Shown here: positions 11,341 to 60,440 of the stretch, in pieces
How the letters are laid out: every line of letters begins with the position of its first letter
How positions within the stretch are numbered: position 1 is the stretch's first letter
Assembly: GCA_034190875.2 (NCBI GenBank)
Contig: CM067354.1
Coordinates: forward strand, 74,746,966 to 74,810,965
Length of the DNA stretch: 64,000 bases
Origin: Urechis unicinctus
Lineage: Eukaryota > Annelida > Polychaeta > Xenopneusta > Urechidae
Direction: 5' to 3'
Made by a program: the position numbers and the translations under genes
The notes under the pieces: generated by a model
Database searches by the model: none
Seen by the model: only the letters and a program-made list of their open reading frames with translations
Told to the model about the DNA's origin: nothing

Positions 11341-13950
11341 TTTAACAATCCTTAATGACTATATAATCATCATATGATTTGTCCTTTGTAGCTTACACTA
11401 TCACATATAAAGTAAGCCACAAAATGTTAATATTATTTGATATTCGGCAGAGCAGCTTCATCGTAGCTTTCGCATCAATATCATGATTCCATGCTTCTAA
11501 TAATTAAAGAACCAATGAGCGCATCGACAATGCTTATACGTGGCATTGTGACATGCCTGGCTCCTATAAAACACTGAGGGGGTATTGCCCAGGTGTAAGC
11601 CGCTAAAGTATGATCCATTAAATGGCAAATGAAGTTGGATCACCACAGGCGTTGTGTGAGATTCTAAAACTATCTGTTATTGACTCATTTCCATTTGCTA
11701 TTCTTTGAAGTGCACAGTGACAATATTGACGACTGTTGCTTTGTACCGCTCTGATTCAAATGACGCTAAAAGCCCTGCTGTATTGACAATAACTTTGTTC
11801 ACAAAGAGTTACTAATAGACATTCTTCCCTCAGTCACCATATAACCCTATTGAAGTGACATTTAGAGGCATCTTTCACGAATTCCGCTTTTGTGTCCAAA
11901 TGGATCTTTAGCAAGGCTTGATAAATTAAGTCACCCCAATCACTGTATTGATATCGGCTCGTAGCGGAAAATGCATTGCACCTCGTTTGTACCCTATTAT
12001 TGCAATACACTTTTTTCAGCGTATGATGTACAGTACAGCACTCATACAGAAATTGCTTTAATAGATCACTAGGGTGTTAGATCATAATGATCATCCTAAT
12101 GTGTAAATGCAACAATCCACACCCATAATCGATGTGTTATAGATGTCGAAGAGTCAAAATCGATGTGGATGTAACTCGGTGAACGTAAAGTGTCTTTTAT
12201 GGTTATTGTTATTCAGCTGTTAATATCAAAACAATCGAGGAAAGCTCGGCCCTTTATTGATTGACGTCCATACAGTATCGACTTGTCCCTCAGCCTTTGT
12301 TACAATATCCCAATAATAGAAACAGGTATCAGTTGCTGAAGGCGCCACATGTAATGCGCAAAATATTATATGTACCATAATTAAATTGCTTAAAAACCAC
12401 AGGATTCGCAAACCTAATAGTGAATGTGAGCAGCAGATATATATCAAGAATATAGATTATTATCACTTGATCGATATTATGTTAATGATTCAGTTCTAGT
12501 AGTTATCTTTATCACCCACCTCTTAAAACAATGCAATTATTGCCTTATGGCTGCTTTAGTAGATGTAGGGCAGGCCATGAGATATTTGCATGTGCTGTGG
12601 CAGGATATGATGCCTGATAAGTGCATGTACATACAGCTAAAAGATCCAGCTAAGCATGTTCTACATCATTCACGTGGTTAAAGTTTGGCAAGTTTTGGCA
12701 ATCATAGCCTAAAAGATAAAGAAGAAACCATAACTATGAACCATAGGACATGTGCTGGCATACACGGGGTCAGGCATTTCCTGATAAACACATAGGCACC
12801 ATATATTATTTATATGCTTTACTATGTTCTGTTTTACATATACTTTGAAGGTAGAAGACCTGTGACGTATAATTAGCCTACTGGGAATGCTCTTAAGTTT
12901 GTGATAACGCACCTTGTTAAGGGTGCTTTCGGTGATTTGAAGAATATCATAAATGGTATCAACGACATCAGCGCAAGTGTAAACTTTGAAATGGCACACC
13001 TCTAATGAATGCATTGTTATTTACAATGTACATTGCACAAAAATAGGGCAGTGTATTGCATTGTATGCCCAACTGCTGCATCATAGACTGGATTTGCGCA
13101 ATCGTTTACCATTGTACTTAATTATAATTTATCCCATTAAATCAGGCATTGCAAGCGATGTCATGTTGAAGTATTTATTCCTAAAGTCAGAGTGGGATAT
13201 CATTGCATTACAGTAATACTAAGCGGGCAGTGTACATTTCTGGTTGTGTTTCTATTAGACAAGTCGATTGATTTGCTACCAAATCGACATGAACGCAGAC
13301 AGAAATAATCAGCCATCGTTCTCATTTACACACAACCTCATTATCTAAACAGACACCATGAAGCCTGATGCGAAAGCATAGGTAGATTGACTTGGTTAAT
13401 CTACGCTTACAGAGGGTGATATGTTGATATAGACACATTCATATTGATACACGAGTCGACCAACGAATAAAAGTGGAAGGAACAACCATGCTCTCACTGT
13501 TATATGGTGAACGGTTATATTTTACTTTATAATGGCATTTGCATAATGAGACCTTCCGAAGTGCAACTTGATAGCTGACCCCTTATAAATCATGCAAGAG
13601 AGGTCGTTCAATTGCTTCATAGCCTTGGTAGTTGGGGATGGGAGGTGAACACATCCAAAGACCCTCTGGATTATATCCATTGGCGTGGATGGCACACACA
13701 GTTAAGACTATGACAAGGCTTTCGTTTTATCTTTTAGTGGCTGATAAAAGGATAGTGACCTGCTTTGCGTTCGATATAATGAAATACAGATCTAGTATAG
13801 TTACCAACGCCCATTTACCATGATCAACAGTTATTAAACTTAACTGACCTTTCGCATCTGTAACCGCAATTCTTAAGCTCATACTGTAATATTATAGTGT
13901 ACAAAATAGACATTCTTTTTATTCATAGAACATTTAACCAGGATGAACGT
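11341..13950. other. unique AT-rich sequence, no gene seen
   Basis: About 2.6 kb with only chance-length frames (the longest is 101 codons, minus strand, 12,709-13,014, with no recognisable pattern). A small perfect hairpin, GTAGATT at 13,382-13,388 and AATCTAC at 13,398-13,404 around a 9-base loop, is the only local structure noted. Confidence 0.45.
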
Positions 13951-16721
13951 ATACGTAGATAATACACTATCGATAATAAATGTAATTTATATGGTGACTT
14001 ATACAACCATAGGTAGTGCACACGGGATGGACATGCTGTACAAACTGAATTTAATAGCGTAGCGCTTCTGATTTCCCTTGGTAGAGTGGTGTATGAATTA
14101 ATTTCAAAAAGCGATCGATGTAAACATAGTTCCAAGGCAACATCAGAGTTCCGCTTAACATTCGAGTTTAGAACACGTGGGAGGTCCAGGTCACTCGATA
14201 TGAATGTTGTATCCAATTGGCTAATACAACAGACATTTCCTAAAATCAAGCTATCCACAACCATTAGACAAAGACATCACTTGTTTGCATGTATCGAACC
14301 ACCAATTATATGCAGAACATATTGCAGTAATGAGCTAATGAGTTACCGCATGAGGATACCCATTTCCTGTATGTTGTATAGGACTACACACATAAATAAC
14401 ATTTTTATAGTGAAGCCTTACCGTGATCTGATAGGTAGGACATCCCTGTTTACACCGCATTGTCGATATAACCGGATCTTCTTGGTTCGTAAATCATGAC
14501 CAGCAATCACATCATTATGTTATATTATCGCTAGCCTCCTGGCTACCTAAAAGACCTTCTCATCGATAACAACAAAACGTGCGTACATTACGGTATAGTC
14601 GTGACATTAGCATTGTATATGAACTGTTAGATATAGTGCACACTACTAAATCTATTATGGTGATTGCACCATTGCCATGGGCATGATTATAATGCATATA
14701 CAACTCATAGTGTAAACGAAAAAACCTGGTTGATCGATCTGAAACATTGTTATGGAAGAATAGTTGGCATGACAATCCGACAGAAAATCAACATTCCGAA
14801 CATTCTGTAATCTTAGCGTTTCGTGTCAAAATGTGTTAATGGTTACTCTTAATTTATTTGTAATATGAATGTGGTCGAATCCAATGCAACATCATCAATC
14901 AATGTTATCTTTGAATTCTGAAGACAGGAAACCTAGTCGTGTGCATGACAGTTGTGACGAGCCTATCTGTATTATGTTGCTGTCATGCAATTATATGACT
15001 AACAGGAGCGTTACAAACGCCTAGTAAATACAGAAACATTATTATTACGGTAATACTTGTCACGACTTTACGGAAGTCATAGCGGTTGACTCCTTCATAG
15101 TTATGTTGATACCCATATCTGACTTCTGAAAGTACAGATCCTTGATGCAAGTTTCAACTGAAACTCATGTGACGTTCTGTTAAAGAATGCTTTTTATATT
15201 TCACCGATTTAATAATATAACCACCGAAATATTTCAATCACCCCGACTGATTTAAATCACAATAAGCGTACGTAGCGGTAGCAATAGAGATATACTATTC
15301 CACAATAATTTCGATTAAATGGCAGCAAGTGCGCCATACCTCACGAATCCAGCAAAACATTAATCCTTCAACAAGCGGACACAACTTTATGATTTATTTA
15401 CGCCTCCGTAGCCAGAACATATTCTAAGACAAAATCTGGTTATTGTTTATTTCCTTACAAACTGTGTAGGCAATGGCACAACGACCCACTATATCGATCA
15501 TGTCGCGGTTAACGTCGCACAAGCAGCTTGATATAACACCTGGAAAAGGTCAACATATTGTTGTCATGCGGATCTTTACACCATTTCTATTGTGCAACCA
15601 TGTATCTGCCAGGTCTATGAGTCACATACTTTGAGATAAGCGTTAAAGGATTATGGATCTTGGGTCGTAGTCTGCGCTCATTCCACACCAAAAAGGTCAA
15701 CGGGCAGATGGTATTTATACGCTGTACCGCAATAGAAGTGCAAATTGATCGGAAATTAGAGCCATGCAATTGCTTCATCATACAGTGAAACGATTATGGT
15801 CGTTAATCACCGGTTGCATTTCGTAAACTATGACATCGGGACCTGTGGAAAAGCACAAATTACTGTTGGCGGTGAAGTCCTCATGTATGCTTATGGTGCG
15901 GCAACCATGAGGTGTGCATGCATGAATTATGAAGTGGGTATTTTGTACTGCTCATGGATGATAAGTAGTTCGGGTGCAGTTGTTTATACAGTTTGTAGCA
16001 ATGTGTACATAGACTTCTTGCTGATGCAAAGCGACTGTTCGTTCTACGCAATGATCAATTCACCATTGATTAGTCACCTAACATATCATGCAATGATAGC
16101 TTGACTGTTCGTTAAATGACGGTATGCATGCTAAATTATACTTCATCATTTCAGCGATTAATTATCTAACGGAGCTGTTAGCCTCCATCAGCCTTGCGCA
16201 GCTTTGGTACTGGAGGCACTAGCCTTTACTTTGTAAATATGCTGTGACTAATCATATACATCGAACTAGCAGTAGCTTCTGCATTTGTCGGCGGGTAAAA
16301 ACCCAAGCAACGTTGCTTCTTAAATTACAGCGACAGGCTCTCCAGTTGTTTGTCCTTTATGACCAAATTGGCGTAAGCTGCATTATAGAACGGTCAGAAA
16401 TAGGGCATTGTGAATGTGAACGTCTAAAGGAAGGCATTCGTTATAAGACATATAACTACGCCACATTTAATATCAAAATTTTCGACCAATTGTTAAGCAC
16501 AACAGTGGTGTTATGGACATGCATTGGGGCATTTATCGCGGCTCATCAGAACTGTCAATCGCAATGCCAAGTATCACGGTCAAATGTCTGATGAACCGCA
16601 CCCCTTGGACCATTACTTTTGTTCAAAATATGCCAGACGATGGCGCACGATATATGCAGCCTATTTGCACGGCATTCTAGTCACATACCCTTGATGGCTC
16701 CGTTGGCTCAAATGTTACCTG

Positions 16722-16738
16722 GATATATATATATATAG
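16722..16738. repeat. short (TA)n run inside F1
   Basis: A run of alternating T and A inside an otherwise conserved F block. The corresponding place in F3 (45,593-45,603) and F5 (about 58,098) has only a few TA units, so the run expanded in F1. Confidence 0.8.
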
Positions 16739-19700
16739 GGACTAATAACAAACATAGTTTAATTTGTGACTTAGGTGTGTTTGTCAGTGATAGGATATAG
16801 GACACGATTATAGCTATCTCGAGACGAATAAATTTTAATTCCATCTCTGATCGTTGCATCTGCAGTCAAGCTCTAGTCATTGCAGAATATTTACGCTCAA
16901 CATATATGCCAGTTAAGCTCGAGGTCAACATGGTATGAGTCTCTCTTATTATACAACTAACTCAACCCGATGATGATATATACCTTACTTGCCACCGATC
17001 ATTTGGCATGCATACACAGCTTATAGATGGTACCGTCACCTAATGAATTTTGTGAAGTATTTTCTCCCTTTTCTAATGTTGGAATAGCAGGTCGCTTGAG
17101 TAGAGAAAATGCACAATTAAGTTGGAAACTGCATATTTTGTTGGGATAGAGAAGCGAGAACTATTTGATGCAGTTGCGTAATTTCATAACAAAACAAAAA
17201 CGTGACATGCATGCTAACAAAGCAAATACGATGTATCAGTGGAGAGCTCTTAGGTCCAATTAATTGCCATTGACAACTCGGTGACATGATAATAATATGT
17301 CAGTTGATCATGCAAGGGCAGCATTAGCAATGTCTAGTCTTTGATCACGGACGACTGGTGTAACCCCTAGTTCGACATAAATTGCTGTTCATCATTTCAG
17401 ATGCTTCTATAATGTTATATTGATTTTTCTTCTTGGTGACGTTAAATACGTCGCCAATGCATACCGTGTTGCTATGATGCAATATGAATAACAAAGAATG
17501 AGTATTGACTGGTGTGAATACCTGAATGACAAATGATACAATTTATGCTAATAGGTATGGCGTTCCGTACCGTTACATTCCGATTGCAAATGTGAAAATA
17601 GAGACCAGTATAATGAGTTTCTTATCATTGCTCTGTAGATAACCGACATTCTATCGTCACAGGCGCTTTCATAGCTCGATGCTAGGACATATGCCAACAT
17701 ATACTAGGCACATATAGTCATATATGTTGTGCCGGATATTTCTAAAACAAGACAATTCATGCGAACTTCACCGAAAGGTAGGAAATACTTCATTCATACA
17801 GACTTGCTATATCCATGCTGATAACAACATGTATAATACGTACAAGAATGTACAATAATTGTTGAATGTAAGATTGATGAACACACCCCTTTGTGTAGGT
17901 GAAACATTGGCCATCAAGCACCATCAAAGCAATTACATGGTAATGTAAATATATCGATCAGGTTGAAAGGTAACTCACGCCTGCGGACGACTATTTTGTG
18001 CAAACGACTCCACAACTTGACAAACATGTGTGACCGAACATGCTATCGCGGTGTGTCAGTAGAAATTAGCTAGATGTAATAAAAGCCTGTCTACTGACGG
18101 TAATCTGGGGTTTAAACGCTTGATGATGATATCAGAATGGTGCGACACGGCATTATTCAACTGTAAGTTGTGAATAAATAAAATGTCGGTAAATACTGAA
18201 TCAAACGTAAATAGATTTAGAGTTGTGGTTTATATGCAATACAAGGGTTCGAATCTAAGGAGGTTGGAGTATTTTGATGAGCTTGGCTGTTCATCGTCTG
18301 CTCTCTCATTCATCCCCGTCTAAATGTAACTATTGTTTCAGCGGTCATAGGATTTGCTTGTACTTGCATCATACATTTTATATGCCCTAATTTTTATGAG
18401 TAATATCCACAGCCATCAATCAGCTTGGTGATTGGAATGTGTTGAGGACGTTATCCTTGCTGGCTTAGCATAATCAGGATGTCAATCGCTTTATTGCGAT
18501 AGGTTGGCATCTTGAACGATATTGGCAAATTACATAAGACAAATATACTAATTCGATTGTTTAGCGACGGTTGTCCCGTGCGTATTGTACTTTGTGGTTA
18601 TGGTCGTAAAGCAAACTTGTTAAATAGCTAATAAGTGTTACGATCATTATATAAGTTGGATATATGGTTAATTGATTGCAATAACCCACCGAAATGCTAC
18701 ATTTACTAATGTAGAAACTTATCCATGAATTATGAGACCAATTAGTACCGCTCATTAATAATCGCACTCCAACAAAATGGCAGGGTGGGCTAATACTACA
18801 GTTGTGAGTCTATCTTAGACGCAAGGTTCTTATAGTACTCACTTAAATAGTCTCCAAAATGATTGTGTAGTGGTCAATGTTTCGACTGCCTCGGACCTAA
18901 ACAATTCGTTCTCTACAATCTTCTTTAGAACGAGTTACCAAAACATGACTAGCCCGGTCGTGCCATTAAGCAGCCTGATTCACTGGCCCGAATCGTAAAT
19001 GCACTAGCGCGATAAAAACTCAGCCTATCGCTCATATCAATAAGGCATTGTAATATCGTGATGTTATTCAATTACTACAATAAGGATCTTGTAATAAATT
19101 TAACCTTTGTTTTCATACTTCTAAAGCTCGTATAACTTTGATATGTAACTTCACCTGGTCACCCGATTAGCAGTTTCCCGACTTTACAATCAATGAGAAA
19201 AGGGAGTAGGATACTTGAAGTTATGGTTCTATCGCTTCTCGTTAGTTAAAGTTTTCCGCCACCAAGTTGGATGTAAATCTATTTCCTCAGGGCAATTGCT
19301 TGTTGGTTCAGGTCGAACTCACCTTGTGTAGTTAGCAAACCGCGGGCGTCGTTAATGTCCCAGGCAATATAGATTTATCTCGCAAATGCAGCTTAAGGCC
19401 ATGCAGACGTGACCTTATCCCAACGAGAGAGAAAAGAAGAACGAATGTTTAGCACATAATTCAAACATTCATGAAAGGTATTAATTGCTCGTAGTTTGAC
19501 TTGCTTGCCTAATATACGATAAAAATAACAAACATCTGTGACATATATTAAATGTCGCTAGAGGAAATAATTAAACAGCATACCTTCATCAGTGTGTCGA
19601 AGAAAATTAATCGCCTAGTCCGTAGTCGAACTTATGACATCAAGCAAGGGAATGACATTCGCAATGCAACCCATTAATTGTTGTTTTTGAAGAACCTTTC

Positions 19701-21232
19701 TTTGAGTTTGCCCTTGGAGAAAAGCTTGGCATTCGTTTATTGTCACGGCTGTAGATCCGCCTGACAAAACTGTCATTATGGTGTTGGCTTTTATACAATT
19801 GACAAAAGGCACACAATGTATACTTTATGCTAAGCATAGTTTGCAGGATTTGATAGGGTGCGCTTTAGTACATTCCTGATCCGTGTCAGATATTTACCAG
19901 CAAAATATAATCTTATGCAAGCCTATCAGTGAACGCAATCACCCTGTTAGTTATCGCGGCATTGGGTGTGCCTGTCGAGGTATTAAGTGAGTGGCGATTT
20001 AATGGATGATTGACATCCGCAACATAGCACGTAATTTGTCGTTAATGACGCATATGTGCTGTGTTCGGCACAGTAGTTTACAGTATAGTAGTATGAGCTG
20101 TTAAAGCTAACATATATTGGAATGAATTACAAAATGCAACAGGCGTTGATATAGAAAACGTTAATTTGTTTGGAATCCTTTATAGCACTGTGGCCTTAGC
20201 AGATGCAAAATGATATTAAGATCATGTTGGCTCTAGTCATTTATGTTGATCAACCTCATATCTGTGTGTAGCGACCTCTGACAATCTAATGCAGTATAAG
20301 ATAGGCCTTCGTTCCGGGGACGACAAACTGTAGGCATTAAAAGGAATGCCTCACATCCATTAACGACGTATTATTACTTTTGCAATTCTTATTTGCGATA
20401 ATATGCAAATGACTGATGCTTAGAAGCTGTTAGAAGATTGTTGCAGGTACATTTATTAACCATTCTTGTTACTCAAAAATATGTGGGCATTACCGACATA
20501 TATTAAGGTCTAAGACTTCGACATTAGTTATCTGGGGTTGTTACAGATGCTTATAATATTTAATGGCCATAGACAGATGATGTTTTCACAAAATCAATTA
20601 TTTCCAGCTGGTAACATCAACAGGTAGCCAACGCCATTTGAAATATCTAAATTGTACAGAGCAATAGCGATGTACTTAAGGTATTTAGAGCTTATGTCGC
20701 GAATGATAAAGTTTAAGACGGCGAATGACTTTGGAGTAAAAAACGTAATTTAATATTAGCCACCAACTTGCATGAGCTATAAATCATGTTAACATGGTTG
20801 ACATTTTGACAGTGGTCCATCTAATTTGAATGTTTTAATATAGGTAAGAACGTGGCGGGTAACACATTTCGGGGCTTTAGTGGCATGTATATTGCAAACG
20901 AATCCAGTTGCCGTGGGTTTGAAGTTTTTCGACACTACATCTATTAAGATTTCCGTACTTTTATGATGTACAACATATTTTTTCATTCATCTCGAAAACT
21001 GAACTTCGTGTTGGACGTTCAACATGATAGTAATAGATGAAAATCATCGCCATCATTGTACATCATGTTTTTCCTAAAGTTAATCATATTGTGTCTGTCT
21101 GACCAGTATTTCTGAGCTTTTGACAGGTATATTACTTATTAGTTAAGCTCGACATGATGGTAATATGCATAACATAGAAAAACCTCAGGGATACGAAGCA
21201 TAGCTCACATGGGAAATACATTAAGTTCCGCT

Positions 21233-21887
<655 letters not shown>

Positions 21888-22254
21888 GCGAATGTAATGG
21901 TGATAGGCAATGGCATGATAATATTCATTTACTGAATTGGTATCTGTGCCATAAAAGTAAGTTTCCCTTTAATTTAGAGAAGGTGGCCGTGATTGAAGTG
22001 CATAATTTATTCCATGTTAACATTAAATGATTTGTGTCAATGCAGCACTTAACTGATTGGTTTAAAGTGCACTAAGCTATAACGCTTGAGCTTATGGCAA
22101 GCAGTCAAAATATATGGTTACGCTTGCATTAAATCTACAGTTACGAGAAAGGCTTACATATGCGCAATACTTAAACTGACGTATATTTCGATGAAGTATT
22201 CAGTAAATTAATGTGATTAATCAAATCGCTGTGCTTGCGTCAAAAAGGAAGAGG

Positions 22255-22915
22255 GCAGGAATCGTTGAGCACAGCTGTGGTCCAGTGGTATAGAAGCTAC
22301 ATCCCAACGTGTTATGGATATACTAGCCATCAAGACGCAGCACAATCATCTAGGAAACATGTTTGCCAATGACGGCATGTTTCCGAACATGTGTTGCACA
22401 TGAGAGTATTTGTTGCACAATAAGCAGACGTTTGAAGTTATGCAAATGGCTAGTGTTCGTGTTGATTCATTTTATGAGGTTTTTATAATGCTTTGGAATG
22501 AGATTCATAATCTACACTCTATTTTGTGTTTTTTTTAACTATTTACCTACCACTAATTAAGGTATGCTTAACACGTTGCAAGCGTCATAATCAATGTAAT
22601 CAGGTTAGGTCAAGCTGGATTGCCAGAGTAGTAAGCCCACGCATATCATCTTGTGTGGGGACTTTTGATATTTGTAGCGCATGTGAGTGTTTTCACATTG
22701 AAGCTCTCTTACATAAAGTATTTGAAAAGATCTCCTTTTAACTGTAAAATAATGCAGGGTGCTATTTCGCACGTTCGATGTTCAACGAATGGAAACGTAA
22801 GCGCACGTGGCAGCTTCAGGTATGACTTATCTGGTGATGCCTTCAGGGTAGGACTTAAGAAACTCCCATATTCATGTCCAGGGCCTGCCATGTCCATTGT
22901 TCAGAGCTGATGCTT
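22255..22915 (+). other. F1 stretch without a clear match in sister copies
   Basis: Between the post-array block that matches 55,235-55,540 and the block that matches 50,150 onward, F1 carries about 650 bases that I could not align to F3 or F4. At 22,270-22,290 the words tggtccagtggtatag resemble the A box of a tRNA-like Pol III promoter, but no B box follows at tRNA spacing. Frames of 62-85 codons at 22,526-22,910 have no recognisable content. Confidence 0.35.
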
Positions 22916-24249
22916 GTGTGAGGCACTTAAAACATAATAAATATATTGAAACCCGCCAACTATAGCTTCCATACTATATTTGTCAGTCAGAAGGTTATGA
23001 CATCCAACGATCGATAGACTCACGTAACATTTCCCACTCAGAAAACCCAACAGCGCATAACAATTGGTCACCGAGAAACATAGCCTTCAGTTTAAAACAG
23101 ACTCCGCTTTCATAGTTTCTATAGACCGTCTTCAAAAACACATTAAGAGAGTTTTATCGCAAAAAAATGATAACACCGTTTATAAAAGCCTAGTTTATGT
23201 GTCAATGCTTTTCAGATCCCAGTTATATTAAATCAATGGAGTGAAGTAAATATCCTTTCCTACACGAACCACTTAATGGTGCCAAACGGTTGCAAACCTG
23301 TGGGGTAATAAACAATTAATTAGACCTATGCGAGGAACGCTATCAAAATCTCTTTTCACTCTTCGTCTAAGCCAACCAACAGACACTCACAATAGCTTGG
23401 CATGCTATAATACTGTACAATCACATAAAGCATGCATTGTTGGGCATGTTCAATAAATTGACATTTGGCTGTTTGAAGGCTCATTGAATATCTTCGCTTT
23501 CACAATGAATAACAATCGTGCATGCACCATGGCACTGATAAGGCCTAGTCAACCCCGGCTTCCCAATTAATTAAAAAATATACATACGGAAGCATTATTT
23601 GTAAATCATTCAAATAATACCAATCGCGGGCATGTGTGCTATGCAGCCGGCTTACAATCCGTTTAAAGGTGTTATCGTAATGACGGACGTTTCTATGTCA
23701 TAACCAACGTAAGACTGAGATATTGTATTAAGTATAACTTTTCTCCAATGTCACATTGGAGTAAACAATCGAACAACGATTTAATAGAAATGAAAGCATA
23801 ATACCAAAGAAGTTTAATTGTCACAAATAAGTATTCACTTTCGCAAGAGTAAAATATGTCAATTATAGTTCCTGCTGTGTATTAACAACAACTGTCAGAA
23901 TAGGCCAATCATGAAATTTCGATGTCGTTAGTACGGGGGATGAATATCGACTTGGTCGTATATGTTGAAGCATTGCAATAACAAGAATATATATAATTAA
24001 CTTTAAATAACCCCCTATAAATGAACTCTGTAAAATACATTGTTCATAAGACGTTTTGTTTGCCTTGAAGTATTTGCTTCCCGGAATCGTAAGTAGCTTC
24101 GATTTGACCTATTAGCCAAGTCAATGCACAGCCGAGGGAAGCGATGAATGACGATCACGTAAGGTTTGGCCTACTTAGACATGTCGAGCCCGCAGAAAGC
24201 CTACTCGCTAAGCTGACGCAGTAGAAAACATTCAAACTAAGCGTCCTTT

Positions 24250-28560: not shown

Positions 28561-28639
28561 TGGACCTTAGCTGATATACTCTCACGAATATATTTCTAAG
28601 TGTGATCAATGGTGCGGGAACGATGTACTGCGCACTTCT

Positions 28640-33960: not shown

Positions 33961-34000
33961 AACCTTCAGGCGATGCCTTCATTTCTGAGACTGATAACAT

Positions 34001-43824: not shown

Positions 43825-43881
<57 letters not shown>

Positions 43882-43897
43882 ATATCTATATATATAT

Positions 43898-43968: not shown

Positions 43969-43969
<1 letters not shown>

Positions 43970-46900: not shown

Positions 46901-47496
46901 GGTCATATTAATAAGGCAATGTAATGTGATTATTAAAGTTTGGACCTGTTAACAGGTTAAATACATTGTTTTCGTACTTCTAAGGCTTTTATGATTATGA
47001 TAAGTAAATTCCCAGTCACACTATGAGGCAATGTCTCTTATTATAATAAACAAGAGAATGGAGTCGGATAATTGAAGCGATGGTGCAAACGCTTCTATTT
47101 TGTTCAATTTCCGCCACCAAATTCTAAGAAATCTCGTTCCCCTAAGACTATTGCTCCTTTGTTTAGGCCGAATTAGCCTACTCTAGGCGGCGTTAAGGTC
47201 CCAGGCAATATAAATTTACCTCGTCTGTGCAACTTAAAGCAATGCAGACGTGACGACACAGAAATTTAGATCGCTTTGAATTTACTATGGAATTTTGCTG
47301 ATTAACTCACTTCCAAATATTTATTGCACTGATATCAATGATGGTCACGGAAAACAAATGATAAGCAAATAATTCAAAAATTCCGGAAAAGTATGTCACG
47401 CATTTGCTTCCTAAACGAATTACTTTTATCCTATAAAACTGACATCAATGTTCGCAGTTTGACTCGCTTGTTTTATATAGGATAAAATATAGTACA

Positions 47497-47748
47497 GTGC
47501 AAGTTTTTGTTCATGAAGAACCCTTGGATCAAAGCCTGTCATTCTTATTCATTATTCCAACTGCTTTAAGTCCGGATCCCAGAACTCTCATTATGATGCT
47601 TGTTCTTTCTCATGTTATAAATAAAAAAAGCTCATATACAGAGAGAGAAAATGCTTGCACGATTACAGATCCAATTACTATCGATGTATATCTTGTGAAA
47701 AGCACAGTTTGCCACAATTTGAAGGGATGGGTTTTGGCGGAGGTGTAA
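47497..47748 (+). other. 83-codon frame in F3 sharing its end with F4
   Basis: The last 39 codons align in the same phase and to the same stop codon as the frame in F4 ending at 53,724. Both carry YTE then ITIDVY (F3 TIDVYLVKSTVC, F4 TIDVYYVLSIVC), with about half of residues identical. Upstream the two frames differ in phase or content, and the F1 counterpart (19,670-19,860) is interrupted. The DNA identity is similar to that of flanking noncoding sequence, so this is most likely shared descent of noncoding DNA rather than a gene. Confidence 0.15.
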
Positions 47749-49586
47749 TCCAAGGTTCAAAGAAGTGAATGGATGATTCAAAGAAGAGTATCTCGATGCC
47801 GTGCCAAACCTCGGCAGTAACCTGTTTTTTATTTCTGTACTGCCATTAAGGATTTGCAATAGCTAGTACTTAGGTGTATCTTTATTGTACATTACTGGTC
47901 AGTGTCAGATACTAGCCAGGAACGGATAAACTTTTGCTACAGTCCTTTGTAAGTGTTTTAACGAGCGCAATCGCCCTCTCAATTTCCCCGGCATTACCTG
48001 TGCCTGTCCAGGTATAAAGCGAGTAGGGCTTTAATGCGTGGGTTGCATCCTCAACACATCACACATTTGGTGCAAAGCCTGTCATTTCTATCAAAATTCT
48101 TCAAGTGACCATGTAACAAATATATTGGATTATATTCCTCCGTGATGCAGAACGATCAACATGGCGTTTGCACACATTCAGCCGGTAACATTCAGACACA
48201 ACCATGTTAACACGAACTAGGCTAGCATTTTTACTTGCGATACCCACAATGCTTTTGCTGTCACGATTATTTGATGAAACCTTGTACATGTATTTCTGTC
48301 CTCGGCTAATTGCTGTGTTTTCAGTTCAGTAGTAAGAAGCATGTTGCTCATGAGCTATTAGCGCTAGAATATATTGGCATGAAAGCAAAATTATAACAGG
48401 CGTTGATATAGAACACGCATTGTTTTAATGCTTTTCATTTTCTAGCAAGTTTGTTTGGATTCCATAATAGCACATTGGTCATAGCTGATGCAAAATAATC
48501 CTATTAAATTGATGTCGGCTAAAATTGATCTAGTTTTTCGTGTAGTAAAGTTGATGAATTCATACCTTTGTATGTATCAACCACTGACAACATTAGTATT
48601 AAAAGTGTTAATGTTGCATAGTTTGCGGAGACTAAAAACACTAACTCAAATGCCACATCTCTTGACGTCGTATCATTGCTTTTGAAAAGCGGATTTACTG
48701 TTTGCTCGAATGTGCAAATATCTGACACTTAGCAGCAGATTGGGGATTGTTGCGAGTTATTCTTTATTGACAGTTCTTGTTGCTTGAATCGATCAATAAA
48801 ACCGCATTCCCCGTTGGTCAGCACGATGGATTGGACTGAAGCTGGCATGCATTTGTGGCAATTAGCAGCACTAGGATACAAAGGGTCAAAAAATTTGACA
48901 TTAGTTATCTGGGATTTGTACAGATGGTAATAAAACATTGGCATACACATATGATGTGATCGCAAGATAAAGTCGTCCTAGCAGGTAACATTGATAGGTA
49001 ACATATACAGTTTAGAATATCCAAGCTATAAAGAGCACTAGCCATGTATATAACGCATTGCGAGCACTTGTAGCGCATGATAAAATATTTGGTTTGCATT
49101 CGGACAGGGGTCCATCTAATGTTAACGTGTTAATATAGGTTAATACATGGCCGGTAACACATTTCGAGCTCCAGTGGCATGTATATTGCTAATTAATGCA
49201 CTTACTGTAAGTTTGAAGAATTTTTACGCTAAAGATATGTTCGTGCCCGTATGATGTAGGGGCAACATATTTTGTTCGCCACATAAATGCCTCCGAAGCT
49301 CACATTCGGCTCATGCTTTCCTTTGTGGTACATCATATGGGTATAGCCCATTTACGATCGTTGTAAATTAGGCCAATGTTTATTACTTGTTTAGGTAGCT
49401 TAAGATCAAAAAGAGTACATTTCCGGTATACATCTTAGATAAACGTCATAGATATGAAATAATATTTCACTGGCTGAAGGATCACGGCTAGTTCAGTGTT
49501 CTATCATCCCACTTCATATTGATGAGTTTATAAATAAAAGTTTAGTATTCCGCAATCGCATCGTATATACATGCATATATACAAAT

Positions 49587-49992
49587 ATACATACATACAT
49601 ACATACATACATACATACATACATACATACATACATACATACATACATACATACATACATACATACATACATACAAACATACATACATACAGACATACAT
49701 ACATACATACATACATACATACATACATACATACATACATACATACACATACATACATACATACATACATACATACATACATACATACATACATACATAC
49801 ATACATACATACATACATACATACATACATACATACATACATACATACATACATACATACATACATACATACATACATACATACATACATACATACATAC
49901 ATACATACATACATACATACATACATACATACATACATACATACATACATACATACATACATACATACATACATACATACATACATACATGT
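49587..49992. repeat. (ACAT)n microsatellite in F3
   Basis: About 405 bases of nearly pure tetranucleotide, with only three interruptions (near 49,675, 49,691 and 49,746), all in the first half. It sits about 395 bases after the conserved 'tggcatgtatattgc' block, the same place as in F1 and F4. Long frames through it are repeat artefacts. Confidence 0.98.
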
Positions 49993-52465
49993 ACAAATAT
50001 TTCATGTCAACATCACAATCGAACGGTAAACGTTTGTATCCCTCTTAGCTTTACATACAGCCACATGACACCTTTGGGTATGACTTTTGTGATGATCATT
50101 CCTGAATGGGATTTAAATAACTCCGATATTTGTTAACAGTATTCAGAGCTGCTACATGAGACTTGGTCAATTGGTTTGAGGTACATGCAACTTAAGTTTA
50201 CCAATAAATTTAAACCACCCATTTTGGACTTCTATACTATGTTTTAGATCAGAACGTTATGACATGCATCGATCGATTGGTAATCGAGGACAAAGCCGTC
50301 TGTGTTTAACAAAATTCGCTTTCTATAGTTACTCTAAACCGTCTTCAAGAGCTCATTACACGAGTTGGATCGCTGAAATAACAATAACGCTTATATCTAG
50401 CTTCTGTGTCAGCGCTTCAAAGATGACTTGAATTAACGTAGTGGCATCAAGTAAATATCCCTTTCCACCCATGCGACCGAATTATGCCAAACGGTTGCAA
50501 ACAAGGACGCACCGCTTAGGGTCTTGTATAGTTAATTAGACATATGCTAGAAAGGCCATCGAAATCATCAATGCCCTGTTCTCTGTTCACCCAAGCCAGC
50601 CAGAAAAATACTAACAATACTTGGTGTGGTAGAATATTGTGCAGTCACATAACGCATGAATTGCTAGGCATGTCCAATATATCGACATTTGTATTGTGCT
50701 GTTTGATGGCTTAGTCACATATCTGCTTCCCGATCTATAAAGACATGCATGCAGTAGCATCGGCTGTGAATCGTGAGAATAATACAGATCGGAACCTTGT
50801 CTGCCATGCAGCCGGCTTAAATTCGGTCTGAAGGAGAGGATGTCACGATAATCATGATAACGAACGTTCCTATGTCGTACTCTACTTGTTAAGACTAAGA
50901 TATCTTGTTCAGAATAGCTTTTTGCTAAATCGATATGTTGACATTTGTAATACATACCTATTGATTGTGCATGTCCAATCCATATTTGATTGATATGTTA
51001 GGTTTGTAAGCGTCGCAATTGGCACGTCGGGGTTACCAGCTAATAATAACCAAGGCATAATACCTAGGTAGATTTATTGTCACAAAATAGTAGTAACTTA
51101 TGCCTGAATACACCGACCCGGAATTATCTCCTATCATGGAGCTCATAAATTGAAGTAATTTAAATGCAAGAATATGTAATTATCTTTTAAATGACCCCTT
51201 ATGAATAAAATGCGTGGTTTATAAGACACACTGCTTGCTTGAAAATGTTAACTTCTCGGAATCGATGATAGCTTCTATTTTTTCTTATCAGTTACTATTG
51301 CACATCTGAGCCATTCCAAATATTCATTACGTTATCATGATTGTCACATTACAGCACAGTGGACTCAATTTAAAAATGATAATGCAGATGATGACTTCAA
51401 ACTACTGGAATGTTCATCCGTTAACTGATTTGATTAACAATGCGTTCACTTATTGAAGCATAACAAAAAATGAAGCTTTACGAAATCCATATTTTGATAT
51501 GCAGCATCGATTCTTGACGCATAGACAAAGTTTAGACTACATTTAATCTGTCTAACCACATGTCAGAACCGGATTATATGCAGAACCTATTGCAGTAATG
51601 TGGTGGAGTTACCGCATGATGATACCCATTTCCTGAATGGGTTGTTGGGCCATAAATTAAGTAACTTTTTTATTTTGAAAGCTAACAATTATAATGCGTG
51701 CAAGAATGTCAAATATTTGTTGAACATAACAATGATGAAAACATCTCTTATTGCAGGCGAAAGCGTGTGCCATCAAACATCTTAAATGCAATAACATGGT
51801 AATGTTAACATATCGATCGGGTAAAAAGCTAACTTACGCCTGCCAGCAACTGTTTCGCACAAACGACTCCGCAACTTGACGAACAAGTGTGACCGACAAT
51901 CCCAAAGCTTCACTGTGTGCCCGTGGCAATAAGCTAGAAGGAATAAGAAATGTTCGGCAAACTCAGGTTATAACGCATGATGAGGCTATCAGCATTGTAC
52001 GACATGGCATCATTCTTCTTTCCAAGGCTTGCTTAATCCAAATAGTTAGTTGTGAATGACTAAAATGGCGTTAAATACTGAATGTATAATAAATTGATTT
52101 ATAGTTGAGATTTATTAGCAACACGAGACTTTGAACTTAAAGAGTGTAGGCCCATTAAATGAGCTTTGAGGTAATCGTCTGCGCTCATATCCATTACCTT
52201 ATCGATGCATCGTTCATTGTTGCAACGAAAATATGATTTGCTACCACCATTGCTCATTTGATATGCCCTAATTGCTGAAACGGTTAACCAACTCATCCGA
52301 GCAGCTTGGCCAGTTTGTTGCCCTTCATGGCAAAATCCATACTGACTAGACAAGAGCAATCAAAGTGGAGCCAAATACAGCGGGATCAGATAAAACAAAC
52401 CTAATTCAATGGGCCCATACAGAATGTAACCCAATAACAGTCAACTTCTGTGAATCGCACTACAA

Positions 52466-52484
52466 CCCCCCCCCCCCCCCCCCC
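52466..52484. repeat. (C)19 homopolymer in F4
   Basis: Nineteen consecutive C shortly before the block at 52,490. The corresponding place in F1 (about 18,790-18,840) has no C run, so it arose in F4. Confidence 0.93.
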
Positions 52485-53493
52485 AACCACCAGTCATTGG
52501 AATAGTCTCCACAATGTTTGTGGCGTGGTCAATGTGTAACATAATAACGACTATTTTCGGATCCCTTGGAAAAGTGATGCAATGTTATGTAAGCTGCATA
52601 CGGTTAATTGCATTGCATATTAAAATCATTAGGTAATTTGCATATATGTTGCTGGAATATAATTAAGCTTGCACAGAATATAACCGCTTTAAAGAGTTAA
52701 CTACTTTACATTGTCTAGCAGCATGACAAAGCAACATATCATTAGAATGTTGCCTTGCAAAAGTTCATGGGCCTCATTTGTCGTTATTGTCATCTGTTTT
52801 TCTCAAATATTGAAACAAATAATTGTACAGAGCTTACGTACAACGAACTGCAGAAGCTTAGTCCCAGCCTTTTCTCTCATATTAATAAGGCAATTCAATA
52901 ATGTGATGTAACAACATTATTGCAGTTGGAAAATTTTGATAAATGAAAAATCATTGTTTTCATACGTCTATAGCTTCTATGATTTTGATATGTAAATTCC
53001 GAGTTTACCTGGTCACACTACCAGGCAATTCTCTCGCTCATTATCGACGGGACAATGGAGTACGCTACTTGAAGCGATGGTTTTAACGCTTCATGAAAGT
53101 TCAATCCGGTTTTCCACCAACTAACGCGACGATATGAAGTTCCGCCGAGGACAATTGCTTATTTGTTAAGGTCAAACATTCCTTGTATATTTATTGCACT
53201 GATATCAAATGAGGTAATGGTAAACAGATGTACACCAATTAATTCAAACATTCTAAAAAGAATTAAATGCAGTTGCTTCAGAATCGCATTCAATCCTCTC
53301 AGATATAGCTGACATTAATGCTCGTAGTTCCAAATAGGATAAGAATAACTTGCCTCTGCGGCAGATATTAATAATAGCTAGAGCAACTAATTGAATAACA
53401 TACATTTATAAGGAAAGTGAAGAAAGGTAATCGGCCTGTCCGCTATCGCACTCATGACATCAAGCAATGGAAGCTATTTTGGATGACTGACAT

Positions 53494-53724
53494 TTGCAAT
53501 GCAACCTTCTCTGGGTTTTGCTGCTCTTTGAGCAACGCCTGGCATTCACGTTCGTGGCTTTCCACAACTGTAAATCCGGATGCCTAAACTGTCATTATGG
53601 TGTTTGCTCTTATACAGAGGACAAAAATTATTGCACGATTGCAATTTATATTACTATCGATGTGTACTATGTGCTAAGCATAGTTTGCAACAATATGATG
53701 GGGTGCGCTTTAGCGAGGGTGTAA
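53494..53724 (+). other. 76-codon frame in F4 sharing its end with F3
   Basis: The sister of the F3 frame that ends at 47,748, with the same phase and stop over the last 39 codons. The predicted peptide is cysteine-containing (CKSGCLNCHYGVC), a pattern partly visible in the broken F1 counterpart. There is no signal peptide or known domain. The evidence for coding is weak. Confidence 0.15.
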
Positions 53725-54325
53725 TTGGTTGAGTAAAACAGTGAACAAAAAAATTAATGGAGCGATGCAATTCTGGTTTTTCGAGCGCTTGTCGCGTATG
53801 ATGCAATTGCGAACGGTGAATGACTTTCGAGTGAAAAGCATACTTGGATATTAGCAATCATTTTGCATAAGCTATCAATCACGTTAGTGTGGTTGTTATT
53901 TAGACAGGGTTCCATATAATTTAAACGTGCTGATATAGTTTAAGACGTGACCGGCAACACATTCCGGGCTCTAGTGGCATATATCTTGCAAATAAATACA
54001 GTTACTGTTGGTTTGACGCTTTTCGACACTACATCTATATATCATTCACGGTTTGGATGATGATGAAGTAGACGACGTACAACTCCTTAGAATTCACATA
54101 CTTGTTGATAAATCACTCATCTCGTTTTATGACGCAACCTATTTAGACCAAAGTAAAAAACTGTTTACGCAGCTTAAGTCAAAGAGTTATATAGATAAAC
54201 ATAAGCGTTATATAATTGTAGGTCACCGGTAGAAGGACAACTGCTAGTGTAGTGTTATGACCTCTCCGTTGATATTGATGGGTATATCAACTGATAAATA
54301 TAGCATTCACTATTCGGCCCGTGCA

Positions 54326-55168
54326 AACATACATACATATATACACAAGTACATATATACACACATACATATATACATATATACATATATACATATATAC
54401 ATACATACAGACAGCACATACATACATACATACATACATGACATACATACATACATCCATACATACATACATACATACATACATACATACATACATACAT
54501 ACATACATACATACATACATACATACATACATACATACATACATACATACATACATACATACATACATACATACATACATACATACATACATACATACAC
54601 ATACATACATACATACACATACATACCATACATACATACATACATACATACATACATACATACATACATACATACATACATACACATACATACACATACA
54701 TACATACATACATACATACATACATACATACATACATACATACATACATACATACATACATACATACACATACATAGACATATACATACATACATACATA
54801 CATACACACATACATGTACATACATACATGTGGTCGGTAACATACATTAGTCAGCACGATGGATACATACACACATACATACATACAAACATACATACAT
54901 ACATACATACATACATACATACATACATACATACATACATACATACATACATACATACATACATACATACATACATACATACATACATACATACATACAT
55001 ACATACATACATACATACATACATACATACATACATACATACATACATACGTACATACCATACATACACAGACATACATACATACATCCACACATACATA
55101 CATACATACATACATACACATACATACGTACATTTATTTTACATACATACATACACAGACGTATACAT
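54326..55168. repeat. (ACAT)n microsatellite in F4, two sub-arrays
   Basis: Two ACAT arrays (54,326-54,830 and 54,863-55,168) separated by about 33 bases of non-repeat sequence (gtggtcggtaac...cagcacgatgg). There are scattered interruptions, and TA-rich variants at both outer ends. It lies at the same position in the unit as the F1 and F3 arrays. Frames of up to 292 codons through it are artefacts of the repeat. Confidence 0.98.
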
Positions 55169-55810
55169 TACCAAATAACTAAGGGGATGGCGCGAAAAAA
55201 ACACTTGTCACAATAAAGAACATTGGTTGTTTTATGATAATATTCATTGCCTGAATAGGTTTCTGTGCCATAAAGTTACATAAATTTTTCATTTATATCT
55301 CATCACATGTTTTGGGTCACTGCAGTTCCTACTCTGTCGGTTCGCAGTGTACAAAGTAATAATGCTTGAAAATTTATGACAAGCAGTCCTAATAGAGGGT
55401 AACATTCGTACTAATTCAATGGATACGGGGATGTCGCAATACTCAAGCTGGCGTATATTTGCCTCACGTAGTGCCATTCCGTTAATTAATGGTGGTTGGG
55501 AAGATCGCTGTGCTTGCGTTGGAGAGGAAGATTGTATGGCATTTTGCGCATAACTCTGCAACGTTGGTTGGAAAATAAGAAGACGCTTAAATTTATACAG
55601 ATGGACAATTTTTGTGGTGATCAATTGCCTGATACTTATACTTAATACTTGACTGCAAGAAGAAGCCGATCATGCATTGGCAATGGCGTCAATAATTGGG
55701 AATAGTATCAACTTTGCACTCATGATAGAGCTCATAGGTAGTACATGCAAGAATATATGTCGAGTTGGAGAATGATTGCTATTACGTAAGTAAACCTACT
55801 GAATGGCTAC

Positions 55811-58800
55811 CAAGTGTAACGCCAAAATGTGGTCCCTTTACACCATATTGATCGATGATCATAAATGTAAGCAATGAAATAATCGTTCTCACGAATGAAC
55901 AATTTTGATTGTATCTATCGTTACCAGACATATTCATATGAGCTAGAAACCTCATTAAGCTATTGGTCAACACGTAGAGTGGTTAAGCTTATTGATATTA
56001 TCTTGAACCTTGCAATTGATATATTATATATTATATTTGCCACATCGATTCTTGACTGATAGACAAAGGCATCACTAACATATATCTACCTTACAAAATT
56101 ACTGAAATGGATTATATGCAGAACCTATTTTCTCAATTGGTTGTAAGACCACACAAGTGATTTTACCTCCTGTTTACATCACATTGTCGGTATAAATGGA
56201 GCTCCTTTACATTTGGCTTGAGTGAATTCAGCAATAAAGTTCGTAAATCACATCATCATGTGATATTTTCACTAAATCTCCGGCCTTTGAAACACCCTAC
56301 TTATAAGTAACAACCGAACTTACATCGTACATTCGCACATGGAATTGGTATTCGCAATATATTTGAACTGTTAGACATTTGACCTGGTACGCACTAATAA
56401 AGCCAGTTTGGTGATTCTAGTATAGTTCTGGGTGAACACATAACCATCCTAATGAAAAAGAATAATAACTACTTGATCTATCATAAATCCTTGTTATATA
56501 AAACTACATATATAATTTCCAAACTTCCTGTCATCTTAGCGCATCATGTCAAAATGTGTTGCTAGTTACTTCTCAACTCCATTGTAAAATATTCATGGTC
56601 GTATCCCGCACTTCACGATATGATCGGTGTAATAGTGATGCATTTTATAACATGTTTGATTAACGTTTCTTATGCATAAACTTGGCGCGTTAACGAGGAA
56701 TCGATCCGTATTTAAATGGCTTATATGTAATCATATGACAGACGGGAGCGCAATGATAGCAGTCGTCACTCTATTGTCTGCCAAAATCACTCCGGGAATT
56801 GATCAACGAAGACTAACATATTGTCCGGCATTTCCCCCGGTTAATAATGATTACGTTTGCAACATAATCATTGCTCGTGATGGCACAGTTAAATATCATT
56901 CGTGCAACTACCTGAAATAACATTATAATATTTACCAAACGTGGTCGTCATATCATCGGAGTATCTAGCAAAGAGTGATGACTGCAATTCGATCTATTCC
57001 CTCATAATTGAGGGCGGCATCGATCTGTAACGAACTAATGCAGTAAATACCTGTGGCAGCATTGTGCACGCTTGGCAGCACATTATGTTAGCTAATCAAT
57101 AGTGTAAGTTGACACAAGATACATGCACCACAGTCTGCGTCAGCATGGCACAATATTTAATCCATGCAAGACTAGCAATCAATCAATACGGAGCAATATA
57201 GCGAATATGCTAAGCTTTTGCGTACAATCGAATTTCGTAACAAGCATTTGTTAGGTTAAAGCACCCAAAAAATTAGACATATCATCCGCAAGACATAATA
57301 AGATAAAGGCATACTTACAATGGTAATATCAGTATACTAGTAAAATAGTACCGATGGCGAGCATGATTACCATGCTGTCGGCCGAAATTCGGACGGTAAA
57401 ATCGCTTGCTTATAGGACTGGTAAAGACTGACATATTACCTGACAGTGCTGTATTGAGCAGCCACGTATTTGTCAGATCTACGAGATACATACGCTTAGA
57501 TAATCGTTATTGGATATTAGATCTTGATCCACGGTCTGCGGCCTATTCCACGTGACAAGGTAAGACGACAACATCGACATTATATTATTCGGAACATGGC
57601 AGATTCAGATAGGATTGATACGCTGTGCCGCCATAGAATGACACGTTGATCGGAAGATTGTGCTGTACAATTGCTTCATCCTAGCGGGTAGAGCAACGTT
57701 GTGACAATTGTTGGTTAAGCAGCGCAGGATTGAGTTATGGAAGATAAATCCGCATTATAATATGTAACCTATAATAGGTTCTTTGCCCCTCGGTACACGA
57801 GTCATCAATCACTATGTGGATGTAGATAATATAGGTGAGTGAGTAAGTTTACCCTTGAACGTATCCGATGTACCATTCTTTTCACTGTGTTATCCGAGCC
57901 TCTGATGAAGAAAAGTTTGCTAGTAGTTACACATCAACTTAGACGATGATCGTGTAATCCATAGCAAAACACAAAATTCTAGCCAAGCACAATAGAGTCA
58001 CGAATCAATTCCAGACGTTTGTACATTATGGATATGTCACGACCAGGCAGTCTAGACGCACTCTGGTAATTGCTCCATTGGATCAAACGTAACCTGGATA
58101 CATATATCAGGGACATATTTCGAGCAAATTGCAATATGTGTCTTCAGTGTGTTTGTCAGTGATAAGACACTCTCTGACACGGTCATCGCTAGCAGTCGTC
58201 AAGATTACAGCTGTCTTGGGACCAATACATTTTAATTCCATCCATAATTGTTACATTTGCAGTCAAATTCAAGCAGTTGTAGGAAATTTATACCCAATAT
58301 ATAGCAGTTTATCTTGAAGTTAGCAATTGTACATGATAAAAATCACATGCAGCGAGTTTCATAACACGTGGTTTATGAATGTATCGTCATAAATGTTTAC
58401 ATTGTACATGGTAAGTTACATCTCGACAAAACAATGTCAAGCTGAGAAGCGCACGACTCCCTCCTATTACATAACAAGCCTAATCTTACATATACAGTTT
58501 GTATCTGGCATCTAATGATCTTGTCAACCGATCATTGTTTTTTCCTTGGCTGGATTACTTACAGTTTCATGTACGGTAACATTTGAAAAAAACATCAAAT
58601 GTTGGAATCAAAAAGCAAATTCAAATTAAAGCAGATGCACATGAACACAGTTTAAGTATATAACTGAACGCTGATGCGTTTACGATAAACGGCGCACATA
58701 ATATGCTGGGTTACAAATACGTGACATGTTATCAAACTCACTAATCATCGTGTTAAGTGTTAAGTTATTGACTAGAGGCTGTCTTACGTCATTCAAGGAA

Positions 58801-60440
58801 GTTTTCTTGACCAAATAGGAACCCATGCACGTTATTCAATGTGTCTTTCATTCACATGTACAATGAGGCGTTAAACCCCGCAGCAGTAAACTCGGTGTTG
58901 GCGTGACATAAATGTTGAGTTACTCTTATTATTGATGCCTCGTCGCCTTGAATGTAAATGTAATGATAATGTGTAACTTGTTGTTGTGATACAATGTTTA
59001 TTATTAAATGGATGTTTGATGGCGAGAATATTTTAATAAGTTATGAGCTCAAACTAACTTTGTTGCATATTTCCGTATGGTGATATTCTATGTTTGCATA
59101 TCAACAAAATCCCTAATATTGCCAACGAGGCATTTATTACCGTATATTTGATGGTAAAGACCTTATGGCGCCTTGATAAAAATGCGTGAATTGTGTTGAG
59201 AAATGCCATCATGTTAAAAAATGAATAAGTTGCTCAATCATTCCCTTGCATGTATCCAACAGTACATCTAGGAGGGTGCTTTCATTAATTTGCGTTGTAT
59301 GCTTATTACTCGTTGCCAAGTCATATGCCAGTATATATAAGAAACAAAACATATGTGTACGCATGTGTGTCTAACAAGCTGAATATATTACTGCAACCTG
59401 AGCATTTATGCATCATTCTACCCAATTTAAAAAATTGGCCATGGATGCACACTGACATTATATATCTGCACAATAACACGTATAATACGTGGTTAAATAT
59501 TAAATGTTTGCACATTTTGACATTAAATTGATGATATATACACAAGCAAGCAGCAATAATGGTGCAGGTGGAAGCATTCGCATCAAGCAATTACGTTACT
59601 ATGATAACATATCGATCGGACAAAATCTTATTTTTACACTTTTCATCAACTAGTTTAGCTGAATGTAACCCTCTGCTTGGCAAACATGTAATATCGAACA
59701 TGTACATGGCACCTTGTTCCATAAGCTAGATACAACGCAATCCCGTCCACATAAGGTTAACTCAGATTAAAACTCGCGCTGAAGATATCAACGCTGCACG
59801 ACACGGCATCATACTTATTCCACACGGCAGATCTTGAATGATTAAAATGGCAGTGAACACTGAATCTAACGTAAATAAATTTATTAGAAGGATCCGATCT
59901 AGGGCGGACACGTTTGATGAGTGCAGCCACTCATCATCTGCGCTCGCATCCATCACCGTCTACATATAACATTTTATGCTGCAATAGGCATAAACCCCAT
60001 TTCCATGCACTTGGTGCACCTCTATTTTACCCTGGTTAGTCCTATTGTTCATGCTTATATGCCTGATAGCTGGGGCAAATAAACTAAGCCATCAGCATTT
60101 TTACTGCTTATTGCCTAATCCATATCGTCAATAGATCGTCGCGAATTTTTGTGATAAACGGTTTGTTAAATGCACATGTATAATCGGACTTGGTTACACA
60201 TGTAAGGACCCAATATGTTTTCAAAATGCACTCGATTTAACACAACTTATGTACGTCAATATGTATAACAGTTGCTAAAAATAAAGAAGTAAACTCGGTA
60301 GCCTAAAACGATTATTAAAGGATCATATTGTGTATGACCGCTACCTTCAAAGATAACATTTATCGATGTCAATGTTACCCTTAGCTAAGCTCCATACATC
60401 ATTTATTTATGGTTTGAGTGGAAATAGTGGAATTATTAGA
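55811..60440 (+). repeat. F-family segment, copy F5 (left part only)
   Basis: Opens with 55,820-56,025 (44,045-44,220 in F3), then the start block at 56,043. It runs parallel to F2 as far as 60,360 and additionally keeps 59,570-59,960, the part seen in F1 at 17,900-18,320 and at 33,580-33,930. It ends at the F1 position of about 18,750, like F2, and is followed after about 200 bases by a (TA)n array. The block at 57,465-57,605 is unusually close (about 90% by eye) to F2 26,790-26,930. Confidence 0.87.

What the first reader, a model, noticed from the sequence alone, without database searches (positions are those of the whole stretch)
13950..60440. A family of colinear, same-strand, roughly 10-kb gene-less segments (F) repeated at least five times
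F1, F2, F3, F4, F5 and a fragment at 33.5 kb share many blocks in a fixed order. F3, F4 and F5 run head to tail without a gap, and F1-F2 nearly so. They are too long and too gene-less for a usual transposon and too diverged and indel-ridden for a young segmental duplication. This could be an ancient tandem array that is decaying, a macrosatellite, or a very large noncoding mobile element.
Basis: partly seen in the sequence, partly recalled or inferred. Interest (0 to 1): 0.75.

Follow-up and report, generated by a model that had tools for sequence, protein, structure and literature searches.

The report
Decaying local array of noncoding duplications
The repeated gene-less segments are real: they look like old, decayed copies from one spot on one chromosome where DNA without recognisable genes has been duplicated locally again and again, not like a mobile element that spread through the genome.

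Summary
F1-F5 share blocks on the same strand and in the same order (46 of 46 non-simple self-matches direct; 0 matches in 5 Markov-simulated windows; 104 of 104 block pairs in concordant order). Units span 4.5-11.5 kb, not a uniform 10 kb. They belong to a larger domain: in four answered genome searches with F1/F2 pieces, matches lie at C13:74.337-74.980 Mb (643 kb) of a 1.19-Gb genome; elsewhere only one 45-bp match and one dispersed short element. In 260 kb of that domain 65% of readable bases align to another place there, in layers of different age (K2P 0.002 to 0.31). I found no Pfam match below E 0.001 in 270 ORFs, no tRNA, no Rfam RNA, no strong conserved hairpin, no convincing coding signal, and no shared constraint between two pairs of copies (odds ratio 1.15, p=0.35, 2840 sites). 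Best reading: an ancient tandem array of noncoding DNA that keeps duplicating locally and otherwise decays neutrally. A mobile element is not supported; a classical macrosatellite fails on identity and regularity. Known kind, moderate interest.

The parts
14304..25700 (+). F1, the most complete unit (about 11.4 kb to the start of F2)
   Evidence: Direct matches to F2, F3, F4, F5 in concordant order; relative about 70 kb upstream, K2P 0.24
25721..30972 (+). F2
   Evidence: 6 blocks to F5, 15/15 block pairs in order, 75% identity; 51 of 52 genome matches of window 25700-31000 local, the query itself included
33773..36902 (+). Broken fragment: 150 bp like F1/F5 at 33773-33926 and a copy of the second half of F2 at 35172-36902
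44054..51488 (+). F3 (about 7.4 kb)
   Evidence: 11 blocks to F1, 55/55 block pairs in order, 70.5% identity; 81% colinear relative at +33.8 kb, outside the window
51489..55800 (+). F4 (about 4.5 kb; lacks about 3.4 kb found in F1 between 14.4 and 17.8 kb)
   Evidence: F1 14305-14414 and 17826-18392 match the adjoining 51573-51679 and 51684-52273
55800..60450 (+). F5
   Evidence: 6 blocks to F2 and 5 to F1, all in order; 84% relative of F4-F5 at +32.7 kb
21232..21887 (.). (TACA)n array in F1
   Evidence: place corresponds to 49567 and 54327
49567..49990 (.). (ATAC)n array in F3
54327..55155 (.). (ACAT)n array in F4
26779..26896 (+). Block of F2 that still finds the most distant copies (C13:74.337-74.485 Mb)
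   Evidence: no reading frame shared by all copies
3251..13694 (+).
   Evidence: 71-74% colinear relatives at about -108 to -112 kb and -66 kb

Best explanation
A locus-bound, ancient tandem array of noncoding DNA. An early head-to-tail array of units, roughly 10 kb long if F1 is a guide, formed at one place on the chromosome. Since then blocks holding parts of units, single units or several units have been copied locally many times (offsets of 4 to over 100 kb), mostly in direct orientation in the 260 kb examined and elsewhere also inverted, most likely by unequal exchange between paralogous units and by replication-based template switching. Between such events the copies diverge neutrally by substitutions, indels and insertions, which gives the present mosaic. 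Shown: locality of the pieces searched, direction, order, corresponding junction, age layers, absence of a convincing coding or shared-constraint signal. Inferred: the original unit length, the duplication mechanism, and that no function holds the array together.
For: Locality: 13 of 13, 51 of 52, 9 of 9 and 28 of 52 matches of four F1/F2 queries lie at C13:74.337-74.980 Mb, the query itself included; the 24 outside matches of the last query all fall on window 18882-19022. Direction: 362 of 368 non-simple matches direct in the 260 kb. Order and junctions. Age layers: K2P 0.002 (4 kb offset), 0.03 (12 kb), 0.13 (33 kb), 0.15 (40 kb), 0.24 (70 kb), 0.31 (F1 against F3-F5). Nearby copies are kin: of 14 copies of one block, the five at 74.337-74.485 Mb and the nine at 74.65-74.97 Mb separate with 100/100 support. 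Noncoding: indels divisible by three 285 of 1954; mean synonymous fraction 0.21 over 3177 open windows (no simulated control was run); Pfam: none of 150 window ORFs (the longest of 460) and none of 120 flank ORFs (the longest of 1268) matches below E 0.001; the five weaker hits are at 0.0019 to 0.0086. No shared constraint; also rho 0.08, p 0.42 over 116 bins.
Against: Identity along the younger pair varies more than counting noise: 100-bp bins spread 0.04-0.09 where I reckon 0.035, so gene conversion or patchy constraint is possible. A 118-bp block is found in the most distant copies while most of its flanks are not, and five distant copies share a 49-aa open frame over it. In the distant copies 24 overlapping open windows have a median nonsynonymous/synonymous ratio of 0.51. 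42 of 628 consensus-fold tests have z below -3 and none above 3, though energies are small. 27,000 of the 260,000 bases read N, so genes there would be missed. No RNA data were available and F3-F5 did not complete as genome queries.
Confidence: 0.8

Rival explanations
1. A cluster of tandemly duplicated genes with short, fast-evolving exons; the shared blocks are introns, untranslated parts and spacers, and exons were missed because they are short, decayed or in unread stretches.
For: Nested local duplication over hundreds of kb is typical of gene clusters (general knowledge). 27,000 of 260,000 bases read N. Open windows of the distant copies have a median nonsynonymous/synonymous ratio of 0.51, and five of them share a 49-aa frame.
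Against: No excess of indels divisible by three (285 of 1954) and no clear synonymous excess; no reading frame common to all copies of the most widespread block; no Pfam match below E 0.001 in 270 ORFs; longest non-simple ORF in the window 175 aa, somewhat above the 130 aa or so that I reckon for random sequence of this composition.
Confidence: 0.12
2. A functional noncoding locus: a repeated long noncoding RNA, small-RNA precursor or chromatin-organising array, like mammalian DXZ4 or FIRRE, kept as an array by selection on repetition, not on sequence.
For: The array has stayed at one place through several age layers. DXZ4 is reported to diverge rapidly in sequence (PMC3491370, listing and start of abstract).
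Against: No consensus hairpin below -15 kcal/mol in 628 non-microsatellite window-strand tests; no Rfam match in the window; no shared constraint found. None of these excludes selection on repetition alone.
Confidence: 0.06
3. A very large noncoding mobile element that inserted repeatedly.
For: Long gene-less units present many times.
Against: Matches of the pieces searched are confined to 643 kb of one chromosome apart from a 45-bp match and a short dispersed element; units of very different length; corresponding F1/F2 and F3/F4 junctions.
Confidence: 0.02

Closest known systems
Macrosatellites (RS447, D4Z4, DXZ4, SST1, TAF11-Like, ZAV)
   Same: Units of several kb in tandem, tending to be specific to one or two chromosomal locations (definition from passages of PMC3018141)
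   Different: Monomers there are near-identical (99.3-99.7% in TAF11-Like; 97-100% within the chromosome 4 SST1 array; same passages); here a median of 75%, units of 4.5-11.5 kb, mosaic, with inverted copies in the wider domain
Low-copy repeats / segmental duplication blocks such as LCR22
   Same: Nested local duplications of varied length and age, partly inverted (general knowledge); LCR22 hosts a family of noncoding RNA genes, FAM230 (PMC6162681, listing and start of abstract)
   Different: No gene recognised here; most copies are far below the 90% over 1 kb by which segmental duplications are annotated (PMC3018141 passage)
Tandem gene clusters born by unequal crossing over (general knowledge)
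   Same: Layered local expansion
   Different: No convincing coding signal or domain found

Membership tests
Macrosatellite | Repeat unit of several kb, head to tail, same orientation | tested here: met
   within the window; inverted copies exist elsewhere in the domain
Macrosatellite | Specific to one or two chromosomal locations | tested here: met
   for pieces of F1 and F2; F3-F5 not answered as queries
Macrosatellite | Regular, near-identical monomers | tested here: not met
   median identity 75% over 362 direct matches; units 4.5-11.5 kb
Macrosatellite | Copy number varies between individuals | not testable with these tools
   one assembly only
Segmental duplication (at least 1 kb, at least 90%) | Identity of at least 90% over at least 1 kb | tested here: not met
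   not met by F1-F5; met by some neighbouring pairs: 99.5% over 4.0 kb and 92.6% over 2.4 kb, 98.1% over 2.45 kb inverted
Transposable element | Copies dispersed over the genome | tested here: not met
   that search skips very common words and scores only the best candidates, a stated limit
Transposable element | Common sharp ends with target-site duplications | not tested
   unit lengths vary, but no search for ends or target-site duplications was made
Tandem gene cluster | Conserved coding exons | tested here: not met
   weak contrary hints; N stretches could not be read

The most novel reading that the evidence does not exclude
The domain is a functional noncoding array whose repetition, not its sequence, is selected: a long-lived, single-locus array of several hundred kb acting as a chromatin boundary or noncoding-RNA source, a counterpart of DXZ4/FIRRE in what is probably an invertebrate, that renews itself by local duplication while its sequence drifts.
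Probability: 0.06. Interest if true: 0.75.

Novelty: new member of a known kind. Interest (0 to 1): 0.35.

Why it matters
It is a clear record of how noncoding DNA behaves at a place that duplicates again and again over a long time: five or six age layers, direct and inverted, without recognisable genes or detectable shared constraint. Such loci test whether local duplication hubs need genes to persist. They can also mislead repeat annotation, since most copies are too old for segmental-duplication calls and too local for transposon libraries.

Tried and rejected
Mobile element: rejected on genome distribution. Coding array: reading frames, codon test, indel lengths and Pfam gave no convincing signal; the contrary hints are reported. 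Structured RNA: 42 of 628 non-microsatellite consensus-fold tests have z below -3 and 18 below -4, none above 3, but the energies are small (lowest -14.3 kcal/mol) and the largest negative z-scores come with energies of -2 to -9, where the spread of the shuffles is small; rejected as evidence of structure. The 138 other tests overlap microsatellites and were dropped before this count. Conserved islands as functional elements: depth of old copies does not predict identity in a young pair, and substitutions in two separate pairs are not associated. Control: 20 kb of C12 was meant as an ordinary stretch, but it carries its own palindrome and satellite (92 self-matches), more than any 20-kb part of the window (0 to 9), so repeats are not peculiar to this locus and it is no clean negative control. 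The genome search with that control did not complete. The organism was not identified; a search for a mitochondrial marker family was unanswered. Seven paper searches: searches listed macrosatellite, satellite or low-copy-repeat work; searches listed nothing that I used. I make no claim that this locus is absent from print.

Full report
Setting. The window is G000:C13:74746966-74810965 of a 1.19-Gb genome in 926 contigs; C13 is 79.6 Mb long, so the domain described below lies about 4.6-5.2 Mb from one end. GC is 37% over the window and CpG observed/expected is 0.7-1.2 in 2-kb bins. I take it for an invertebrate animal, by inference only; the species was not identified.

Observation. Self-comparison of the window gives 58 matches, 46 of them not simple repeats, all 46 on the same strand; five Markov-simulated windows give none. 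The chain F1 plus start of F2 (15511-25897) aligns with F3 plus start of F4 (45224-51678) across the unit junction, so the head-to-tail arrangement is older than the copying that produced this pair. Unit lengths are about 11.5, 7.4 and 4.5 kb.

Wider domain. I fetched 196 kb of flanks and compared the 260 kb with itself. There are 368 non-simple matches, 362 direct; median identity of the direct ones is 75%, with 5th and 95th percentiles of 68% and 88%. With a more sensitive setting, 64.6% of readable bases, and 68.3% of the window, align to another place within the 260 kb in direct orientation; of 232 chains, 37 span at least 3.5 kb with at least 1.2 kb aligned. Frequent offsets are about 4, 12, 33, 40, 70 and 108 kb. 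Corrected distances for chosen layers are 0.002, 0.03, 0.13, 0.15 and 0.24, and 0.31 for F1 against F3-F5. These are minimum estimates, since only alignable, ungapped columns count.

Genome distribution. Window 14000-16000: 13 of 13 matches on C13 at 74.65-74.97 Mb. Window 25700-31000: 51 of 52 at C13:74.336-74.980 Mb, 13 of those 51 on the minus strand; the other is 45 bp on C12. Window 26712-27018: 9 of 9 on C13 at 74.337-74.966 Mb. Window 17800-21000: 28 of 52 at C13:74.694-74.979 Mb; the other 24 lie on 12 contigs (two of them elsewhere on C13) and all fall on window 18882-19022, a dispersed short element. All counts include the query's own place. The search scores only the best candidates and skips very common words, so the counts are lower bounds. 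Searches with window 900-10000, 55800-60500 and the C12 control did not complete, so F3-F5 were judged through their alignments to F1 and F2 only.

Inverted part. Several minus-strand matches pair up symmetrically around about C13:74.903-74.905 Mb: 74839084 with 74966169, 74839726 with 74965527, and 74867621 with 74942529. Not every minus-strand match fits this axis: copies near 74.978-74.980 Mb pair with 74.833-74.834 Mb about a point near 74.906 Mb. L030 and L032 are 98.1% identical over 2.45 kb in inverted orientation, and L004 and L006 93-96%. A second set at 74.337-74.485 Mb also holds inverted copies: L033 against L034 is 95.2% over 3.1 kb. A tree of 14 copies of the most widespread block separates the five at 74.337-74.485 Mb from the nine at 74.65-74.97 Mb with full support and pairs 74.839 with 74.966 and 74.870 with 74.936, as local copying predicts.

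Genes. The longest non-simple stop-free frame in the window is 175 aa. The 150 longest of 460 window frames of at least 45 aa and the 120 longest of 1268 flank frames gave no Pfam match below E 0.001 (best 0.0019). In 1954 gaps of paralogous alignments 285 (14.6%) are multiples of three; 3177 open 90-base windows, of 48660 looked at, have a mean synonymous fraction of 0.21, about what I would expect without coding constraint, though I ran no simulated control. The most widespread block has no frame common to all its copies, but five distant copies share a 49-aa open frame over it. In four of those distant copies 24 open windows show a nonsynonymous/synonymous ratio with a median of 0.51 and a lowest value of 0.36; they overlap one another and were picked for being open, and I give them little weight, but they are the nearest thing to a coding hint. 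There is no Rfam match and no tRNA in the window. Of 628 non-microsatellite consensus-fold tests none is below -15 kcal/mol, although 42 have z below -3.

Constraint. For 2840 columns present in two separate pairs of copies (F1 and its relative about 70 kb upstream; F3-F5 and their relatives about 33 kb downstream), a match in one pair does not predict a match in the other: odds ratio 1.15, p 0.35; binned correlations are -0.11, -0.06 and 0.32, none significant. Depth of old copies does not predict identity in the younger pair (rho 0.08, p 0.42, 116 bins). The tests cover alignable blocks only, so a weak or scattered constraint cannot be excluded.

Reading. The pattern is that of a place where noncoding DNA has been tandemly duplicated, re-duplicated in blocks of varied length and partly inverted, for as long as the oldest alignable copies allow one to see, and where copies otherwise decay. 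The mechanism (unequal exchange between paralogues, template switching) is inferred from the arrangement; it was not shown. It resembles a macrosatellite in unit size and locality (definition from passages of PMC3018141) but not in regularity or identity, and it resembles low-copy-repeat blocks without an evident gene. It is a new member of a known kind. The one control stretch, on C12, turned out to be repeat-rich in its own way, so I cannot say how unusual such a locus is in this genome. What keeps a gene-less place duplicating is open.

Noticed in passing
L039:1516-10000 (C12:30.0115-30.0200 Mb): The intended control stretch is a palindrome: 8.5 kb matching its own reverse complement at 98.5%, with an internal tandem array of units of about 290 bp. 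It may be real or an assembly fold-back; it reaches the end of the fetched stretch.
   Followed up: no
window 18882-19022: A short dispersed element: 24 matches of about 50-140 bases outside the array on 12 contigs, 72-90% identity; possibly a short interspersed element.
   Followed up: partly
L014:5515-9503 and the directly following copy (C13:74.6555-74.6635 Mb): A 4-kb direct tandem duplication at 99.5% identity inside the old array: the domain recently duplicated, unless it is an assembly error.
   Followed up: partly
C13, around 74.903-74.905 Mb: Several minus-strand matches pair symmetrically about this point (74.839 with 74.966, 74.868 with 74.942), suggesting a large inverted duplication with a wide spacer; not all minus-strand matches fit.
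   Followed up: partly
L020:1386-2468 and 2390-3001: Two overlapping long frames (361 and 204 aa) in a stretch with hardly any paralogous partner in the 260 kb; no Pfam match above its cut-off. Possibly an inserted repetitive element.
   Followed up: no
window 10104-10529: Imperfect short repeats with offsets of 150, 205 and 355 bases.
   Followed up: no
window 1020-1401 and 63638-64000: The two ends of the window are 76% alike over about 380 bases, another sign that the domain extends beyond the window.
   Followed up: partly
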